Below, piece by piece: positions 7,820 to 17,191 of a stretch of 64,000 nt of DNA. The position numbers were made by a program, and so were the translations under genes. Numbering within the stretch: position 1 is the first letter of the stretch; the number at the start of each line of letters is the position of its first letter. This stretch comes from Rubrobacter xylanophilus. Its GTDB lineage: Bacteria; Actinomycetota; Rubrobacteria; Rubrobacterales; Rubrobacteraceae. Location of the stretch: assembly GCF_007164525.1 (NCBI RefSeq), contig NZ_AP019791.1, positions 1,971,501 to 2,035,500 on the forward strand, read 5' to 3'. The notes beneath the pieces are model-generated. The model saw only the letters and a program-made list of their open reading frames with translations, made no database searches and was not told the DNA's origin.

Positions 7820-8338
7820 TCAGGACTCCTTGAGGCGGCGTCCCCGGAAGAAGCCCCTGAGGAGGGCTGCGGCCTCTTCGGCGAGGAGGCCACTCCGGAC
7901 GGGGGCGGTATGGTTGAGGCGATGGTCGGAGAGGGTATCGTGGAGGGTTCCGGCGTAACCGGCCTTGGGGTCGGGGGTGGCGTAGACGAGCTGGGAGATC
8001 CGGGCGGCCCATGCCGCACCGGCGCACATGGGGCAGGGCTCCAGCGTGGAGTAGAGGGTACAGCCGGTCAGGCGCCAGCCGCCCAAAGCGCTGGCGGCCC
8101 GGCGGAGGGCCAGGAGTTCGGCGTGGGCGGTGGGGTCGCCGGTGGCCTCCCGTTCGTTGGAGGCGACGGCGAGGACTTCGCCACCGCGGGCCACGACGGC
8201 GCCCACCGGGACCTCGCCGCGGTCCGCAGCCTCTCCGGCGGCCTGCAGGGCGAGGCGCATCATGGCGAGGTCGAGATCCGGGTGTCGCTCCGTCGGGTAC
8301 ACGCCACCGATGATAGCAGGAGAGGCAGCGGCACCCAT
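7820..8338 (-). CDS. tadA: tRNA-specific adenosine deaminase
   Basis: TadA deaminates adenosine 34 to inosine in tRNA-Arg(ACG). The 172-residue protein carries the zinc and catalytic signature H72-A-E74 and P-C102-P-M-C105, with the VPVGAVV segment before it. I start at ATG 8338, which overlaps the arsN2 stop (TGATG), so tadA is translationally coupled to the arsenic operon; this adds about 15 residues before the usual start region. Being the last cistron of an ars operon is unusual for a housekeeping tRNA-editing gene, which may also have its own promoter. Confidence 0.93.
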   Translation of the reverse strand: MGAAASPAIIGGVYPTERHPDLDLAMMRLALQAAGEAADRGEVPVGAVVARGGEVLAVASNEREATGDPTAHAELLALRRAASALGGWRLTGCTLYSTLEPCPMCAGAAWAARISQLVYATPDPKAGYAGTLHDTLSDHRLNHTAPVRSGLLAEEAAALLRGFFRGRRLKES

Positions 8339-8772
8339 CAGAGGCGCAGGGCCATTACCCGGGCGCTTGCGGGGCAGGCCGAGACGAACTCGACGGACTC
8401 GCGCACCGGCGAGGGCACCTCCCCGCGCGAGACGGGCTCGAACCCCAGGCGCGAGAACAAGCCGTCTGCGGTCTCGGTGAGCAGGTACACCTCCCGGACG
8501 CCGAGGCGGCGGGCGAGGGACAGGGCCGCCTCCGACAGGCGCAGGCCGAGCCCCTCGCCGCGGTGGCCGCGCTCGACGGCGACGGAGCGCAGGAGCGCGG
8601 CGGGGGGGTACATCTCCAGCGCCGCGCACCCGACCATGCGCGCCCCCGAACGGGCGACCAGAGCGGTCTCCAGATGATCCTCCAGGCCCTCCTGCGGCAG
8701 CCCGCAACTCCGGAGGAGGGCCAGTATCTCCGGGAGGTCTCCGCCTCCGGCGCGCTCGATGGAGACGCTCAC
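8338..8772 (-). CDS. arsN2: Arsenic-resistance N-acetyltransferase, ArsN2 type
   Basis: A 144-residue GNAT-fold protein starting at GTG 8772, which overlaps the arsC stop (GTGA). The family-typical pattern is clear: DLPEILALLRSCGLP near the N-terminus, the acetyl-CoA loop RSVAVERGHRGEGLG (about residues 64-78), YLLTETADGLFSRLGF, and the C-terminal SVEFVSACPASA. These are hallmarks of the ArsN2 group, which occurs in ars operons; ArsN-type enzymes acetylate organoarsenicals or arsenic-containing amino acids, but the substrate of ArsN2 is not settled. Fourth gene in arsM-arsR-arsC-arsN2-tadA. Confidence 0.9.
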   Translation of the reverse strand: MSVSIERAGGGDLPEILALLRSCGLPQEGLEDHLETALVARSGARMVGCAALEMYPPAALLRSVAVERGHRGEGLGLRLSEAALSLARRLGVREVYLLTETADGLFSRLGFEPVSRGEVPSPVRESVEFVSACPASARVMALRL

Positions 8773-9203
8773 GGGCCGCCTCCCAGAAGCTCCGCCTCGA
8801 TGCGGGCCCGGATCTCGTCGCGCACCTCCCGGAACACCGCGAGGCGCTCCTCCTCGTCTCCCTGGGCCTGCGACGGGTCCGCAAAAGACCAGTGCAGCCG
8901 CTCCCTGGCGCCGGGGAAGGCCGGGCACGCCTCGTTCGCGGCGTCGCAGACCGTGATCACGTAGTCGAAGGGCTCCCCGAGGTAGCGGTCGAGCGTCTTG
9001 GACTCCTGCCCCGAGATGTCCATGCCGAGCTCGGCCATCACCGCCACCGCCTCGGGCCTGACCCGCGTGGCCTCCGTTCCGGCGCTGTGCGCTTCGAACC
9101 GGTCCCCGCCCAGGTGCCGGAGCAGCCCCTCGGCCATCTGGGAGCGGGCCGAGTTGTGGGTGCACAGGAAGAGCACCCGTACCTTACCGTCCATCACCAT
9201 CAC
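8769..9203 (-). CDS. arsC: Arsenate reductase, thioredoxin-coupled (low-molecular-weight phosphatase type)
   Basis: ArsC reduces arsenate to arsenite in the cytoplasm. The P-loop C14-T-H-N-S-A-R20 (CX5R) binds arsenate, and the cysteine pair C86 and C93 (VCDAANEAC) matches the resolving cysteines of the thioredoxin-dependent class. Three in-frame ATG codons (9203, 9200, 9194) are possible starts; all overlap the end of arsR (stop at 9184). Length (about 141-144 residues) is normal. Confidence 0.95.
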   Translation of the reverse strand: MMVMDGKVRVLFLCTHNSARSQMAEGLLRHLGGDRFEAHSAGTEATRVRPEAVAVMAELGMDISGQESKTLDRYLGEPFDYVITVCDAANEACPAFPGARERLHWSFADPSQAQGDEEERLAVFREVRDEIRARIEAELLGGGP

Positions 9204-9534
9204 CTCCGCGCTGCCCTAGGAGCGCCTGGGAGGCCTCGGAGAGCAGCCCGGCGAGGGCCTCCCGCTCCAGCGAGTAGAAGCTCCACTTTCCGCGCCGCTC
9301 CTCGCTTACCAGCCCGGCCTCCCTGAGCCTGCCCAGATGGTAGGAGATGCGCGACTGTCCCGCGCCGAAGCGCTCCACGAACTCGCAGACACAGATCCCG
9401 CGCGAGCTCTGCTCGTCGGCGAGCATGAGCAGCATCCGGGCCCTCACGGGGTCGCAGAGCGCCCGGCCGAGGGACACGAGGATCTCCTCCCCCGTTGCAG
9501 AACCGCGCCCCCGCACAGCGCCGCTACGCGCCAT
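9184..9534 (-). CDS. arsR: ArsR-family arsenite-responsive repressor
   Basis: A 116-residue winged-helix repressor starting at ATG 9534, overlapping the arsM stop by 11 nt. The metalloid site C48-V-C50 sits in the recognition-helix region (GICVCEFVERF), as in As(III)-binding ArsR proteins of the E. coli type, and the HTH segment QSRISYHLGRLREAGLV follows. It presumably represses the operon from the inverted repeat at 10342-10357. Being second rather than first in the operon is a less common order. Confidence 0.93.
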   Translation of the reverse strand: MARSGAVRGRGSATGEEILVSLGRALCDPVRARMLLMLADEQSSRGICVCEFVERFGAGQSRISYHLGRLREAGLVSEERRGKWSFYSLEREALAGLLSEASQALLGQRGGDGDGR

Positions 9535-10294
9535 CCCGCCCCCCGGCGGGCTTGCGGGCCCGGATGAAGGCGCTGGCGACCGGGGGCAGTTCGGAGGCCC
9601 CACAACAGTCTCCCCTGCCCGCGAAACGGTGGGTGATCTCGACGGAGACCCCCTCGAAACCGGCCGCCGCGAGCAACCGCCGGTACTCCCCGGCCTCCAA
9701 CGCCCCGGCCACGCACCCGGCCCACAACCCGGGGTCGTGACGCAGACCCGCCGGAAGGGGTGGCGAGCCGTCGGGGAAGACCACGTCGTAGACGGCGAGC
9801 CGGCCACCGGGCCGGAGCACCCTGAACGTCTCGGCGAACACCCGCGCCTTGTCGGTGGAGAGGTTTATGACGCAGTTGCTCATCACCACGTCCACGCTCG
9901 CGTCCGGCAGGGGGACGTCTTCTATCTCCCCCTTGAGGAACTCGACGTTCTCCGCACCCGCCTCCGCAGCATTCCTGCGAGCGAGCTCCAGCATCTCGCT
10001 GGTCATGTCGAGCCCGTAAACCATCCCGCCCGGAGACACCCGCCGGGCGGAGAGCAGGGCATCCAGCCCCCCGCCGCTTCCGAGATCCAACACCACCTCC
10101 CCCGGCACAAGCCCCGCCAGTGCCACCGGGTTGCCGCACCCGAGCGAGGCCAGCCCGGCCTCCCGGGGAACCTCCCCCCGCTCGGCGGCGGAGTAATGAG
10201 CCTCCGTCACCCCACCGCAGCACGAACTCCCGCCCACCGCGCGGGCCGCAGCCGCGTAACGGAGCCGCACCTCATCCCTCAGACCACGCCCCAT
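9524..10294 (-). CDS. arsM: Arsenite S-adenosylmethionine methyltransferase
   Basis: ArsM methylates As(III) to volatile or less retained methyl species. The protein (256 residues from ATG 10294, which has GAGGAGG about 10 nt upstream) shows the SAM-binding motif DLGSGGG (70-76) and the conserved cysteines of the family: C25/C26 (GSSCCGG), C53 (LGCGNP), C141 (SNCVINL) and C194 (WAGCVAG). It is the first gene of the operon. No ArsB or Acr3 pump is in the window, so methylation may be a main detoxification route at this locus. Confidence 0.95.
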   Translation of the reverse strand: MGRGLRDEVRLRYAAAARAVGGSSCCGGVTEAHYSAAERGEVPREAGLASLGCGNPVALAGLVPGEVVLDLGSGGGLDALLSARRVSPGGMVYGLDMTSEMLELARRNAAEAGAENVEFLKGEIEDVPLPDASVDVVMSNCVINLSTDKARVFAETFRVLRPGGRLAVYDVVFPDGSPPLPAGLRHDPGLWAGCVAGALEAGEYRRLLAAAGFEGVSVEITHRFAGRGDCCGASELPPVASAFIRARKPAGGRDGA

Positions 10295-10334
10295 GCGATG
10301 CCGTCCTCCTCTCGCATCAACCAAATTCGATGCG

Positions 10335-10364
10335 AGTTTACATCAAATCGTTTTGATATAGCAA
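10335..10364 (-). promoter_or_regulatory. ars operon promoter with ArsR-type operator
   Basis: On the minus strand TTGCTA (10359-10364) and TAAACT (10335-10340) are spaced by 18 nt as a sigma-70-like promoter. Between them lies ATCAA-N6-TTGAT (10342-10357), the classical ArsR inverted repeat. A second inverted pair, GCATC/GATGC, lies just downstream near 10313-10332. Confidence 0.7.
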
Positions 10365-10373
10365 CCGGCGGGG

Positions 10374-11798
10374 TCAGGCACCGGGGAGGAGGTTAAAGAC
10401 GCTCAGGATTGTGTAGACGCCCAGCAGGGCGATGGCGATGCTGCTCACGACGAGGAGGGCGTTGAAAGCGGCACCGCCGTAGAGGCGGCGGTCTATCTCG
10501 GTACGGCGCAGGTACCAGACGCAGACCACCACGGCGAGCAGGAAGACGCCGGTCATGACGCCGCCTATCTGGACCATGATCACCGGGGACTGGACGAAGA
10601 GGTAGGCCGCGCCCCAGACTATCGGGAGGATCACGGTGAAGGCCCGGACGTAGCGCAGGCGGGTGGTCGCATTCTGCCAGTCCAGCAGACCCACCGTCGC
10701 CAGCAGGTTCGTGAACATCCGGGACCAGCTCGGGATCGCGGCCCACAACGTGGAGCCCAGTACGGCGATCGCCCCGATCAGGAAGCCGATGCTTATCCAC
10801 TCACCCAAAGTGTCGGTGTACATCCGGGAGAGGGTCGTGATCATCTCGTTCCCCTCCGGGACGAGACCCTGAGGGTTCAGCACCGCCGCCCCCATGATGA
10901 AGAACGCCAGCGTCCCGAAAGTGTAGATGACCCAGGAGAGGAAGGCGTCCTTGTACATCACGTTGATCCAGCCCCGCGCTCTGCGGGCCCACTCCTCGCT
11001 GCCGTCGTTCGGCCCGACCCAGCGGGCGTAGCCCTTCTCCACGCACCAGTAGGTGTAGAAGGTGATCTCATCGGCCCCCACCCCGGTTATGCCGAACATC
11101 GCTATGGCGGCTCCCAGGGCTCCGGCCGGGATCTGGAAGCCCAGACCGCTGGCCAGATCACCGGCCCCGTAGCCGAACGGGGTGAAGGGCAGTCCGAACG
11201 CTATGGCGATCGTGACGAAGGTAAAGACCCCGACCAGCAGCACCGCCCCACGCTCTATGAGCCCGTAGCGGTTGGAGTACAGGAGCGCTATGCTCCCCCC
11301 GGCGACCAGAACGGTCCAGATGAGGATGGACCTGAACCCCAGAGGATCCCCGCCGATGGGGAACAGCACGCTGAAGGCCACCGCCACCCCGCCGACGATC
11401 CCCCCGATCTGGAGCACCTTCGAGAGGGCCATGACGACCCACAGCACGTTGACCCACCCTATGGGCCCGAACCGCGGCGGCACCTTGTTGTAGCCGGTCA
11501 GCGCGGGCTGCCCGGTGGAGATGGTCCAGCGGGCCAGCTCTATCTGCACCGCGACCTTGACGAGGGTGCTCACGATGACGATCCACAGGATCGCAAACCC
11601 CGCCTGCGCCCCCAGCGTGGTCGTCGCGATGAGCTCCCCCGATCCCACGATGGAGGCGCTCAGGATCAAACCCGGCCCGAAGTACCGCAGGCTCTCGATC
11701 CAACCCTCGGGAGGCTCCTTTATCCCCTCCGGCGTGAGATGGTACGGGTCGTCCGCAATTCCTCCAGGCCTCGCCGTCCCAACCTCACCCGTCGCCAT
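10374..11798 (-). CDS. Divergent Nramp-superfamily metal transporter
   Basis: A 474-residue membrane protein with about eleven predicted helices and overall Nramp-like layout. In canonical Nramp proteins helix 1 carries DPGN and helix 6 carries MPH; here the matching segments read VGSGELIATT (helix 1) and MFGITGVGADEI (helix 6), so the usual Mn2+/Fe2+ ligands are absent. Such divergent members exist in several phyla, and substrate (Mg2+, other ions or none of these) cannot be assigned. It is upstream of the ars operon on the same strand but separated from it by the ars promoter. Confidence 0.85.
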   Translation of the reverse strand: MATGEVGTARPGGIADDPYHLTPEGIKEPPEGWIESLRYFGPGLILSASIVGSGELIATTTLGAQAGFAILWIVIVSTLVKVAVQIELARWTISTGQPALTGYNKVPPRFGPIGWVNVLWVVMALSKVLQIGGIVGGVAVAFSVLFPIGGDPLGFRSILIWTVLVAGGSIALLYSNRYGLIERGAVLLVGVFTFVTIAIAFGLPFTPFGYGAGDLASGLGFQIPAGALGAAIAMFGITGVGADEITFYTYWCVEKGYARWVGPNDGSEEWARRARGWINVMYKDAFLSWVIYTFGTLAFFIMGAAVLNPQGLVPEGNEMITTLSRMYTDTLGEWISIGFLIGAIAVLGSTLWAAIPSWSRMFTNLLATVGLLDWQNATTRLRYVRAFTVILPIVWGAAYLFVQSPVIMVQIGGVMTGVFLLAVVVCVWYLRRTEIDRRLYGGAAFNALLVVSSIAIALLGVYTILSVFNLLPGA

Positions 11799-11951: not shown

Positions 11952-13187
<1,236 letters not shown>

Positions 13188-13200
13188 CATACCTCCCGTC

Positions 13201-13596
13201 TCATCTGCGAACGATGTGTCCCTCCCGAACCAGCGCCGAGACCGCACGCCCGAGCTGATCCTCCTTCACCAGGACGTAGTCGGTCTCATAGGTGGATAGG
13301 ACGAAGACCCCGACCCCGGAGAGCGGCCCGAGGAGGGAGGAGAGGATCCCCGTCTGACCGAAGTCCAGGGGTCCCTCCACCTTGAGCACCCGCCATCCGC
13401 CCTCCCGCCGGATCCCGTCGGGAACGAGGTCTTCGGGACAGACGACGGAGAGCTCCTCAGGGCTGCGGGTCACGGAGAAGAACGGGGCCTCGACGGCCCA
13501 GGCGGGCACCTCCTCCTCCGGGCCCAGCCGGCACACGGCGAGCCGCCAGCCGGGCACCGAGAGCTCCAGGGGCGTGCCCGGGGCCTCACCGGACAT
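13201..13596 (-). CDS. ACT-domain protein (CASTOR/ACT_7-like)
   Basis: A 131-residue protein starting at ATG 13596. It looks like two short ACT-type halves: an N-terminal half with PAWAVEAPFFSVTRSPEELSVVCPE (the start of this pattern is typical of ACT_7 proteins) and a C-terminal half with GILSSLLGPLSGVGVFVLSTYETDYVLV. These motifs match bacterial relatives of the CASTOR arginine sensors and of aspartokinase ACT modules. ACT domains bind amino acids. Its place between argR and argG, 11 nt after argR and about 14 nt before argG, suggests sensing of arginine or a pathway intermediate; that role is inferred, not shown. Confidence 0.8.
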   Translation of the reverse strand: MSGEAPGTPLELSVPGWRLAVCRLGPEEEVPAWAVEAPFFSVTRSPEELSVVCPEDLVPDGIRREGGWRVLKVEGPLDFGQTGILSSLLGPLSGVGVFVLSTYETDYVLVKEDQLGRAVSALVREGHIVRR

Positions 13597-13607
13597 CTTC
13601 CGTCCCG

Positions 13608-14087
13608 CTACTCCGCGCTCCCCGCCGGCCGGGTCTTCGCCCGGCACACGTCGGCGATGAGGGCAGCCACCTCCTCGGCGGCGGCGCTGTCCGGGGTCAC
13701 GGCCAGCACGGTGTCCTGACCGGCGATGGTCCCCACTATCTTCAGGCCCTTCACCCGATCCAGGACGCTGGAGACCGCTCCGGCGGTACCGTCGCGGGTG
13801 TGGATGACGACGATGTTCTGCGCCGGGGTGAGCCCCAACACGAAGCTGGGGAGCACCTCGATGCTTGCGGAGCCCGGCTCGTGCGGCAGCGCCAAATACC
13901 GGTTGCCCACCTTCAGCACGCCGAGCTCCGCGAGATCCCGGCTCACCGTCGCCTGGGCCACCTCCACGCCCTCCTCGGCCAGAGCCCGCACCACGTCCTG
14001 CTGGGTCCCCAGGTCCCGCTCGGAGATCAGACGGAGTATCAGGTTCTGCCTGGTGGTCTTGTCTACCGGCGCGCTCGCCATGGCCAT
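13608..14087 (-). CDS. argR: Arginine repressor ArgR
   Basis: A 159-residue ArgR protein, the arginine-dependent hexameric regulator of arginine genes. The winged-helix part has TQQDVVRALAEEGVEVAQATVSRDL (SRDL is the recognition-helix signature), and the C-terminal arginine-binding oligomerisation part has GTIAGQDTVL, close to the usual GTIAGDDT motif. ATG at 14087 or 14081 would serve. It follows argC by 10 nt. Confidence 0.95.
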   Translation of the reverse strand: MAMASAPVDKTTRQNLILRLISERDLGTQQDVVRALAEEGVEVAQATVSRDLAELGVLKVGNRYLALPHEPGSASIEVLPSFVLGLTPAQNIVVIHTRDGTAGAVSSVLDRVKGLKIVGTIAGQDTVLAVTPDSAAAEEVAALIADVCRAKTRPAGSAE

Positions 14088-14097
14088 TCCACACCCC

Positions 14098-15120
14098 CTA
14101 CCTGAGATGCTCGAGCCCGAGATCCTCCGGATACCCGAGCGCGAGGTTCATGTTCTGCACGGCCTCCCCGGCGGCCCCCTTGAGCAGGTTGTCCACCGCC
14201 GCGAAGAGCAGCAGCTTCCCGGCCCGCCGGTCCACCGCCGCCGAGAGCCGGGCCCGGTTGGTGTTGGCCACGTGCGAGATGTGCGGCACCTCCTCCCGGG
14301 CCTCGACGAAGCACCATCCCGCATAGTCCTCGCGATACCAGCCGAGCACCTCCTCCGGCCCCGGTATCTCCCCTGCCTCCACGACGATCGTCTCCAGCTC
14401 GCCCCGGCTTATGGGCAAGAGGTGCGGCACGAAGGTCACCGGCGGCGCCTCCCCGAGACGCTGGAGCATGATCTCTATCTCCGGCGTGTGGCGGTGCCGG
14501 GGCTCGCCCCCCGTAACCCCGTACGGAGAGACGCTCTCGTTGACGCTCACGAAGTGTGTCCTGGGGCTGGGCTTCGCGCCCGCCCCACTGACCCCGGAGA
14601 GCGCGTTGATGGTCACGGAACGCACCCCTCCACCCATCCGCCGGATCACCGGCGCGAGCGCCAGGATGGCCGCCGTGGGATAGCAGCCGGGATTGGCCAC
14701 GAGCCTCCCCCCCGGAGCCCCGAAGACCTCCGGCAGCCCGTAGTGGGCCTCCCCGAGCAGCTCGGGAGCCGGATGCTCCCCGTACCACTCCCGGTATACC
14801 CGCGCGTCCGGAAGCCGGAAGTCCGCCGAGAGGTCCACCACCAGCCGTACCCCCGCCTCCAGCAGCCCCCGCACCGCCTCCGCGCTCTCCCCGTGCCCGT
14901 AGGCCACGAAGGCCACGTCCAGCCCGGAAGCGTCCACCTCCGCCGGGTCCAGATACTCCCCCCCGGCAGCGACCTGCGGGTACACCTCACGGATCCTCCG
15001 CCCCGCATGCCCCCGAGAGGCCACCGCAAGGCTGCCCACCTCCGGATGCCCCCCGAGCAGCCGTACCAGCTCCACGCCCACGTACCCGCCGCCGCCATAG
15101 ATCCCTACGCTCAGTCCCAT
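14098..15120 (-). CDS. argC: N-acetyl-gamma-glutamyl-phosphate reductase
   Basis: ArgC reduces N-acetylglutamyl phosphate to the semialdehyde using NADPH. The 340-residue protein opens with the dinucleotide fold GIYGGGGYVGVELVRLL and has the catalytic C146 in NPGCYPTA, with the DLSADFRL motif at about 96-103. ATG 15120 is chosen because the fold begins right after it. The likely promoter at 15128-15156 puts the transcript start within a few bases of the ATG, so the mRNA may be leaderless. It diverges from argJ. Confidence 0.96.
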   Translation of the reverse strand: MGLSVGIYGGGGYVGVELVRLLGGHPEVGSLAVASRGHAGRRIREVYPQVAAGGEYLDPAEVDASGLDVAFVAYGHGESAEAVRGLLEAGVRLVVDLSADFRLPDARVYREWYGEHPAPELLGEAHYGLPEVFGAPGGRLVANPGCYPTAAILALAPVIRRMGGGVRSVTINALSGVSGAGAKPSPRTHFVSVNESVSPYGVTGGEPRHRHTPEIEIMLQRLGEAPPVTFVPHLLPISRGELETIVVEAGEIPGPEEVLGWYREDYAGWCFVEAREEVPHISHVANTNRARLSAAVDRRAGKLLLFAAVDNLLKGAAGEAVQNMNLALGYPEDLGLEHLR

Positions 15121-15173: not shown

Positions 15174-15202
15174 TTGACTGTCCGGCTTCCGGATGCGACA
15201 AT
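15174..15202 (+). promoter_or_regulatory. argJ promoter, nearly leaderless
   Basis: TTGACT (15174-15179) and GACAAT (15197-15202) are 17 nt apart. A start about 7 nt downstream would be within 4 nt of the argJ ATG at 15213. TGAAT at the start codon itself resembles an ArgR half-site. Confidence 0.6.
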
Positions 15203-15212
15203 ACGGCTCCCG

Positions 15213-16436
15213 ATGAATAAATATCCGGAAATCGGAATAACGGAGCTCTCCGGCGGGGCTCTGGCGCCGGAGGGCTTCGTGGCGGGGGCTGCGGCGTGTG
15301 GGATCCGGGAGGAGGGGCGGTTGGATCTGGGCCTGCTCCTCTCGGAGCGTCCGGCGGTGGCTGCGGCGGTGTTCACCTGCAACCGGGTCAAGGGGGCGCC
15401 GGTGGTGGTGAGTCGGGAGGCCGTCGGGCGCGGGCGGGTGCGGGCCGTGGTGGCCAACAGCGGCAACGCCAACGCCGCCACCGGCCGGCGCGGGCTCGAG
15501 GACGCCCGGGCGATGCAGCGGCTCGCGGCCCGGGAGCTGGGACTCCGGCCGGAGGAGGTGGCGGTCGCCTCCACCGGCGTCATCGGGGAGCGGCTGCCCA
15601 TGGAGCGGGTGGAGGCCGGCATCCGGCGGGCGGCGGCCGGGCTCGGACGGGACGGCTCGGGTTTCGCGGCGGCCATCCTCACCACCGACACCCGGATCAA
15701 GCAGGCCGCGGTGCGGGTGGAGGTGGAGGGAGCGGAGTTCACCGTCGGCGGGACCGCCAAGGGGAGCGGCATGATCCACCCGAACATGGGCACCATGCTG
15801 GCCTTCCTCACCACCGACGCCGCGCTGGAGGGGGAAACGTTGCGGGGGGCCCTGAGCCGGGCGGTCGACCGCACCTTCAACCGGATCACCGTGGACGGCG
15901 ACACCTCCCCCAGCGACATGGCCCTCCTCATCGCCAACGGGGCGGCGGGCGGCGGCGTTCTGAGGCCGGGCTCCCCGGGACACGCAGCCTTCGAGGAAGC
16001 GCTCGAGGAGGTCGCCCGCAGGCTGGCCCGCGAGATAGCGCGCGACGGGGAGGGAGCCACGAAGCTCCTCGAGGTCGTCGTCGAGGGAGCCCCGAGCGAG
16101 GAGGATGCCGCCCGGCTGGCCAGGAGCGTGGCCGGGAGCAACCTCGTCAAGGCCGCCGTGGCGGGGGAGGACGCCAACTGGGGCCGGGTGCTCACCGCGC
16201 TGGGCTACTCCGGGGCGGGCTTCGATCCGGAGGGTGTGGAGATCCACTTCGGCCCCGTACTCGTCTTCGCGGGCGGGGAGCCGGTCGAGCACGACATCTC
16301 CGCGGCCAACGCCGCGCTCGGCGGGGAGGAGGTCGGGATCCGCATCCGGCTCTCCGGGGGGAGCGCTGCGGCCGCGGCCTGGGGCTGCGATCTCACCAGC
16401 CGGTACGTCGAGATCAACGGGAGCTACCGCACGTGA
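15213..16436 (+). CDS. argJ: Bifunctional ornithine acetyltransferase / N-acetylglutamate synthase
   Basis: ArgJ transfers the acetyl group from acetylornithine to glutamate, recycling it. The 407-residue precursor cleaves itself before a threonine; here the site is MGTMLAF (about residues 196-202), preceded by the family motif KGSGMIHPN. A Gly replaces the usual Ala before the nucleophile. VANSGNANAATG and VDGDTSPSDM are further ArgJ signatures. Start at ATG 15213; a longer frame upstream would run through the promoter. The stop overlaps argB (GTGA). Confidence 0.96.
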   Translation: MNKYPEIGITELSGGALAPEGFVAGAAACGIREEGRLDLGLLLSERPAVAAAVFTCNRVKGAPVVVSREAVGRGRVRAVVANSGNANAATGRRGLEDARAMQRLAARELGLRPEEVAVASTGVIGERLPMERVEAGIRRAAAGLGRDGSGFAAAILTTDTRIKQAAVRVEVEGAEFTVGGTAKGSGMIHPNMGTMLAFLTTDAALEGETLRGALSRAVDRTFNRITVDGDTSPSDMALLIANGAAGGGVLRPGSPGHAAFEEALEEVARRLAREIARDGEGATKLLEVVVEGAPSEEDAARLARSVAGSNLVKAAVAGEDANWGRVLTALGYSGAGFDPEGVEIHFGPVLVFAGGEPVEHDISAANAALGGEEVGIRIRLSGGSAAAAAWGCDLTSRYVEINGSYRT

Positions 16437-17191
16437 GGCCCGTCGTCGTGAAGGTCGGCGGGGCGAGCGTGGCCGGGGGCGCCCTGGAGGATCTTCCGGG
16501 CATGCTCTCCGGCGGGACCCGCATCGTCCTCGTGCACGGGGGCGGCAAGCAGCTCAGCCGGATGCTCGACACGCTCGGCATCCCCACGCGCTTCCACGAG
16601 GGCCTGCGCATCACCGACGAGCGGACCCTCGAGGTCGCCGAGATGGTCTTCGCCGGAAGCGTCAACAAGGAGCTGGTGCGGGGACTTCTGGCGCTCGGGG
16701 TTCCCGCGGCGGGCATCTCCGGCACCGACGGGCCCGTGCTGCGGGTCGAGCCGCTCCCCGGGCTGGGGCGCGTGGGCCGGATCGTGGGGGTGGAGGACCG
16801 GCTGCTGGAGGCGCTGTGGAACGGCGGGTTCGTACCGGTGGTGGCGCCGCTCGGGCTCGGCCCGGAAGGGGCGTACAACGTCAACGCCGACGACGCGGCC
16901 GCCGCGCTCGCCGTCGCCCTCGGGGCGCGGGGACTCCTGCTGCTCACCGACGTGGACGGCCTCCTGCGGGACGGCGAGCCGGTACCCGCGCTCACTCCCG
17001 GGGAGTGCGAGCGCTACGTGAGGAGCGGGATCGCCTCCGGCGGCATGGCCCCCAAGCTGCGGGCCGCCGCCCAAGCCGCCCACGGCGGGGTGCCGGCCAG
17101 GATCATCAACGGCGGCCGGAGAGGCGCCCTGGCCGGGGCGCTGGCCGGCGAGCAGGTGGGAACCCTCATACAGGAAGGAGCCTTCACATGA
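16433..17191 (+). CDS. argB: Acetylglutamate kinase
   Basis: ArgB phosphorylates N-acetylglutamate. It starts at GTG 16433, overlapping the argJ stop, and has 252 residues: VVVKVGGAS, the VLVHGGGKQLS loop, and VNADDAAAALA and TDVDGLL of the amino-acid kinase fold. The N-terminal helix typical of arginine-inhibited hexameric kinases is missing, so it resembles the short E. coli type; feedback control may then rest on other enzymes or on ArgR. Confidence 0.95.
   Translation: MRPVVVKVGGASVAGGALEDLPGMLSGGTRIVLVHGGGKQLSRMLDTLGIPTRFHEGLRITDERTLEVAEMVFAGSVNKELVRGLLALGVPAAGISGTDGPVLRVEPLPGLGRVGRIVGVEDRLLEALWNGGFVPVVAPLGLGPEGAYNVNADDAAAALAVALGARGLLLLTDVDGLLRDGEPVPALTPGECERYVRSGIASGGMAPKLRAAAQAAHGGVPARIINGGRRGALAGALAGEQVGTLIQEGAFT

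What the first reader, a model, noticed from the sequence alone, without database searches (positions are those of the whole stretch)
13201..14087. CASTOR-like ACT protein encoded between argR and argG
The 131-residue gene lies between the arginine repressor and argininosuccinate synthase, with gaps of 11 and about 14 nt. Its two-half ACT pattern resembles the ACT_7/CASTOR group, which in animals contains the cytosolic arginine sensors of mTORC1. A bacterial homologue inside an arginine operon would be an attractive ligand-binding regulator, for example acting on ArgG or on the arginine kinase step, especially as ArgB here lacks the N-terminal helix linked to arginine feedback.
Basis: partly seen in the sequence, partly recalled or inferred. 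Interest (0 to 1): 0.6.

Follow-up and report, generated by a model that had tools for sequence, protein, structure and literature searches.

The report
CASTOR-like ACT protein in arginine operon
A small bacterial protein related to the animal arginine sensor CASTOR1 sits, kept by selection, inside the arginine-making gene cluster of this bacterium and most of its relatives, is often joined to an acetyltransferase there, and in a second bacterial lineage also sits among arginine genes, so it is probably an arginine-pathway sensor, although its ligand and target are untested.

Summary
Window 13201-13596 (-) is a 131-residue gene between argR and argG in an argC-argR-ACT-argG operon divergent from argJBDF. 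It is a two-module ACT protein (PF21631 + PF13840/ACT_7). Its only PDB relatives by profile are Atu0741 and CASTOR1/CASTOR2; an AlphaFold model (pLDDT 92) matches the same proteins best. The arginine link is real but limited: 24 of 34 family genomes with a readable argR-argG slot keep the gene there, and 29 of 30 fetched loci of a divergent group in another actinobacterial order have it next to argJ, mostly between argC and argJ. In 12 family genomes it stands beside, or is fused in either order to, a GNAT acetyltransferase. Elsewhere the link is absent (0 of 75 loci outside Rubrobacteraceae). CASTOR1's guanidinium-contacting Asp304 is conserved (Asp106), but in all 124 sequences compared, so it does not prove arginine as ligand. 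The idea that it replaces ArgB feedback is not supported: Rubrobacteraceae ArgB lacks the N-helix with or without the gene, and the other lineage has both helix and gene. Best reading: an arginine-pathway amino-acid sensor acting by allosteric contact, partner unknown in this genome. Function untested.

The parts
13201..13596 (-). ACT gene, 131 aa; N-module PF21631 (aa 20-60), C-module ACT_7 PF13840 (aa 65-122); motif STYETDY with Asp106 aligned to CASTOR1 Asp304
13608..14087 (-). argR, arginine repressor, 159 aa
   Evidence: Pfam Arg_repressor and Arg_repressor_C
11952..13190 (-). argG, argininosuccinate synthase (start 13190 or 13187)
   Evidence: TIGR00032 539 bits
14098..15120 (-). argC, N-acetyl-gamma-glutamyl-phosphate reductase, first gene of the operon
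   Evidence: TIGR01850 318 bits
15150..15167 (.). ArgR-operator-like palindrome TATTCAAATTTCTGCATA in the argC/argJ divergent region; TATTCA(n6)TGnATA is kept in 15 of 15 loci
   Evidence: position; ArgR binding itself is inferred
15174..15202 (+). promoter-like TTGACT-17-GACAAT for argJ, conserved in the family
15213..16436 (+). argJ, first gene of the divergent argJBDF operon
   Evidence: ORF; identified by translation, gene order and homology in relatives
16433..17191 (+). argB, acetylglutamate kinase without an N-terminal helix before the KxGG motif

Best explanation
The gene encodes a small stand-alone amino-acid-binding regulatory protein of the Atu0741/CASTOR-like ACT_7 family that has been recruited to arginine biosynthesis. 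It is made with ArgC, ArgR and ArgG from a divergent promoter region that carries an ArgR-type palindrome, so its level should fall when arginine is plentiful (inferred). It probably dimerises and binds arginine, or a basic intermediate such as ornithine, between two ACT_7 modules, where CASTOR1 holds arginine with Asp304 (here Asp106; inferred). Ligand binding changes its contact with a partner protein (inferred). In many relatives the partner is a GNAT acetyltransferase encoded beside it or fused to it; this genome has no GNAT in that slot, so here it would act in trans on another protein, most simply an enzyme of the acetylated half of the pathway. Shown: family, gene order, conservation, fusions. 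Inferred: ligand, dimer, regulation, target.
For: Profile search of the PDB with 68 family members finds at E<=1e-5 only Atu0741 and CASTOR1/CASTOR2, each CASTOR matched by two stretches. AlphaFold model pLDDT 91.8; best Foldseek hits Atu0741 (TM 0.86) and arginine-bound CASTOR1 (TM 0.75). 24 of 34 genomes of the class with a readable argR-argG slot have the gene there. A second, divergent group in another actinobacterial order has it next to argJ in 29 of 30 fetched loci. Fusion to GNAT in 8 genomes of 5 genera, in both domain orders. Asp106 and the STxxTD motif are invariant in 124 sequences. Purifying selection. Conserved ArgR-like palindrome.
Against: The motif is equally invariant in relatives with no arginine gene nearby, so the ligand could be another amino acid. 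Outside Rubrobacteraceae the 75 best-matching loci show no arginine linkage. Ten genomes of the class lack the gene in the slot, and six of these have neither ACT nor GNAT there. The slot also takes in a metallo-hydrolase gene, so it may simply attract genes. This genome has only weak, generic matches to the slot GNAT.
Confidence: 0.55

Rival explanations
1. The ACT protein is the regulatory half of an arginine-controlled acetyl-transfer system: with the GNAT it makes an arginine-inhibited N-acetylglutamate synthase, and in ACT-only genomes it controls ArgJ or an unlinked synthase. (A sharper version of the best explanation.)
For: Fusion to GNAT in either order within the arg operon; in the second lineage the gene abuts argJ, the other acetyl-input enzyme.
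Against: The GNAT resembles RimI and generic GNATs, and no N-acetylglutamate synthase appears among its PDB or NCBIfam hits; four genomes have the GNAT without the ACT; only weak matches in this genome.
Confidence: 0.2
2. The GNAT-ACT form is a protein lysine acetyltransferase controlled by an amino acid, as in the AAPatA/MaKat enzymes; the lone ACT protein is a remnant or a free regulatory subunit.
For: ACT-GNAT protein acetyltransferases that respond to Cys or Asn exist in actinobacteria (PMC6434083).
Against: Those carry an ACT with a DxPGxL motif, not the ACT_7 pair; the operon setting points to arginine. The lone ACT gene is under purifying selection, so it is no dead remnant.
Confidence: 0.15
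3. The protein replaces lost arginine feedback on ArgB.
For: Rubrobacteraceae ArgB lacks the N-helix.
Against: ArgB lacks it also in all five ACT-less loci where its start was read, and in the second lineage ArgB keeps the helix although the ACT gene is present.
Confidence: 0.07
4. A family member with a general amino-acid-related role, placed in the arg operon by chance and kept by descent.
For: The family has varied neighbours elsewhere; the slot gathers accessory genes.
Against: Kept in place across about ten genera at about 50% identity, and a second placement among arginine genes in another order.
Confidence: 0.15

Closest known systems
Atu0741 (PDB 1zhv), A9CJY8-like family, PF21631 + PF13840
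   Same: Same size, same two modules, TM 0.86, 37% identity
   Different: Atu0741 is deposited as a hypothetical protein without known function; its own gene context was not tested here
CASTOR1/CASTOR2 (GATS-like), cytosolic arginine sensors of mTORC1
   Same: Homologous; each CASTOR half matches one bacterial unit; Asp304, Thr300 and Gly279 equivalents conserved
   Different: CASTOR is a double-length protein that binds GATOR2; the bacterial protein is one unit, and the residues at Phe303 (Thr105) and Ser111 (Gly96) differ
AAPatA/MaKat ACT-GNAT protein acetyltransferases (PMC6434083)
   Same: ACT and GNAT in one chain, in actinobacteria; resembles the fused relatives
   Different: ACT of another type with DxPGxL motif, Cys or Asn ligands, not described there as arginine-operon genes
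Aspartokinase ACT domains (3s1t, 2dtj)
   Same: Similar paired-ACT fold (TM about 0.64)
   Different: No profile match at E<=1e-5; part of a kinase, not stand-alone

Membership tests
A9CJY8/Atu0741-like ACT_7 family | PF21631 N-module above cut-off | tested here: met
   60 bits against 27
A9CJY8/Atu0741-like ACT_7 family | PF13840 ACT_7 C-module above cut-off | tested here: met
   61.6 bits against 27
A9CJY8/Atu0741-like ACT_7 family | Fold of 1zhv | tested here: met
   TM 0.86, E 6.9e-14
CASTOR arginine sensors | Two ACT pairs in one chain | tested here: not met
   131 aa, one pair; the relation is homology, not membership
CASTOR arginine sensors | Asp that contacts the guanidinium group (Asp304) | tested here: met
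   Asp106 aligned to Asp304 by sequence, 124 of 124 rows
CASTOR arginine sensors | Ser111 contact to the alpha-amino group | tested here: not met
   Gly96 here; Ser in 8 of 21 Rubrobacteraceae rows
CASTOR arginine sensors | Binds arginine | not testable with these tools
   no binding assay
AAPatA ACT-GNAT acetyltransferases | GNAT domain in the same chain | tested here: not met
   window protein is ACT only; met in 8 relatives
AAPatA ACT-GNAT acetyltransferases | ACT domain with DxPGxL motif | tested here: not met
   no DxPGxL in the window protein; GPLDFGQTGIL in the C-module

The most novel reading that the evidence does not exclude
Single-unit CASTOR-like proteins are arginine sensors in bacterial arginine operons, acting on an acetyltransferase by contact or fusion; animal CASTOR1 would then have kept an arginine-sensing role already present in bacteria.
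Probability: 0.25. Interest if true: 0.75.

Novelty: new variant of a known kind. Interest (0 to 1): 0.5.

Why it matters
Atu0741-type proteins are spread over many bacterial phyla and some archaea and have no assigned function in the sources read here, yet they are the nearest relatives of the mTORC1 arginine sensor among solved structures. Placement in arginine operons of two lineages, and a fusion partner, make their ligand and target testable with simple assays and bear on where CASTOR's arginine sensing came from.

Tried and rejected
ArgB-helix compensation: no correlation. GNAT as a known N-acetylglutamate synthase: no such hit. Pocket residues that set both arginine-linked groups apart from the rest: none clear. 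One origin or two for the arginine-linked groups: the second-lineage rows form a supported group (97) and lie apart, but a single clade is not rejected (AU p 0.195), and 123 columns are few. Paper searches for an ACT gene in arg operons, or in Rubrobacter, found nothing on point; the library lacks most subscription papers, so absence there is weak evidence.

Full report
What is there. The window lies at 1,971,501-2,035,500 of a 3.02 Mb single-contig genome. On the minus strand the order is argC (14098-15120), argR (13608-14087), ACT gene (13201-13596), argG (11952-13190), with gaps of 10-13 nt; argJ, argB, argD and argF run the other way from 15213. The ACT gene is a true coding gene: against the sister species G015 dN is 0.09 and dS 0.46, with third positions most changed; it evolves faster than ArgR (dN 0.01) or ArgG (0.05).

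Family. Pfam gives A9CJY8-like_N on residues 20-60 and ACT_7 on 65-122, both far over cut-off. NCBIfam has no match. Single-sequence search of the PDB finds Atu0741 (1zhv, E 7.5e-26) and then CASTOR1 (E about 1e-16). A profile of 68 members finds, at E<=1e-5, only Atu0741, CASTOR1 and CASTOR2, with two matched stretches in each CASTOR. The AlphaFold model has pLDDT 91.8 and pTM 0.83; Foldseek ranks 1zhv first (TM 0.86) and arginine-bound CASTOR1 next (TM 0.75), with aspartokinase ACT domains further down.

Context in the class. Of 40 genomes held, 26 have a match. In 24 genomes it lies in the argR-argG slot (in G001 split over two contigs, in G018 with argR beyond the contig end). Ten genomes with a readable slot lack it there. 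L022, L025 and L029 are copies away from the arginine genes; G039 has one copy in the slot and one elsewhere. In 12 of the 24 genomes a GNAT acetyltransferase is in the slot too: fused GNAT-ACT in G032, G030, G004, G029 and G005, fused ACT-GNAT in G022, G006 and G010, separate in G008, G033, G036 and G011 (open frames; Pfam). Four ACT-less genomes have the GNAT alone and six have neither. So ACT and GNAT are not strictly paired, but fusion in both orders speaks for a working contact. A metallo-hydrolase gene also enters the slot in several genomes, so the slot does attract genes.

Second lineage. A phylum-wide search turned up L136, with the ACT gene between argC and argJ. A search of that genome's order found 40 of 248 genomes with a match; of the 30 loci fetched (the best matches), 29 have argJ beside the ACT gene, and 28 of these also show argC on the other side (L171 ends before it). 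Ten weaker matches were not fetched. Where read, the wider operon is argC-ACT-argJ-argB-argD-argF-argR. The arginine-linked rows form a supported group (97) apart from the Rubrobacteraceae rows, but a single arginine-linked clade is not rejected (AU p 0.195). Genera and order there bear only codes.

The rest of the family. Of the 80 best loci in the species-level collection, 5 are Rubrobacteraceae or share their gene order, and all 5 have arginine genes; of the other 75, from Chloroflexota, Bacillota, Acidobacteriota, Planctomycetota, Pseudomonadota, Methanosarcina and others, none has ArgG, ArgR, ArgC, ArgJ, ArgB or ArgF in the DNA held (up to 5 kb a side), and one has a distant ArgD-like aminotransferase (28% identity), which is not specific. 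Their neighbours are mixed. Other actinobacterial families with a PF21631 match also showed no arginine genes in the loci fetched. In these data arginine linkage is thus a property of two actinobacterial groups, not of the family.

Ligand. CASTOR1 holds the guanidinium group with Asp304 and the backbone carbonyls of Gly274, Thr300, Phe301 and Phe303, and the amino group with Ser111 and Val112 (PMC5187391). By alignment these are Asp106, Asp78, Thr102, Tyr103, Thr105, Gly96 and Val97. Asp106 and Thr102 are invariant in 124 sequences, arginine-linked or not. This fits a basic ligand but cannot single out arginine. No dimer model could be made here.

Regulation. Fifteen argC-argJ intergenic regions share TATTCA(n6)TGnATA, an ArgR-type palindrome, and a TTGAC-17-GACAAT-like promoter for argJ. 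Control of the ACT operon by ArgR is inferred from this and from gene order.

ArgB. That such helices go with arginine sensitivity is established knowledge, not tested here.

Verdict. Real, conserved and correctly assigned; the arginine-pathway role is likely, the ligand plausible, the target open. It is a known kind of protein in a setting that I did not find described.

Noticed in passing
L005, L006, L007, L009, L010, L015, L020, L024: GNAT acetyltransferase fused to the ACT_7 unit, in either order, inside the arginine operon.
   Followed up: partly
L018 1884-2654, and in L008, L011, L012, L014, L015, L016: A metallo-beta-lactamase-fold hydrolase (PF12706) gene also sits in the argR-argG slot, before or after the ACT gene.
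   Followed up: partly
L027 1504-1865: In G036 the ACT match is broken into two pieces (query 13-84 and 95-131): a damaged gene or an assembly error.
   Followed up: no
L002 (G000:C1:2196541-2196729): The only other ACT_7 match of this genome lies in a 450-aa frame, probably an aspartokinase.
   Followed up: no
window 8338-10396: Arsenic-type cluster: arsenate-reductase-like gene, ArsR-like regulator, ArsM-like methyltransferase and a GNAT; read from the translations only.
   Followed up: no
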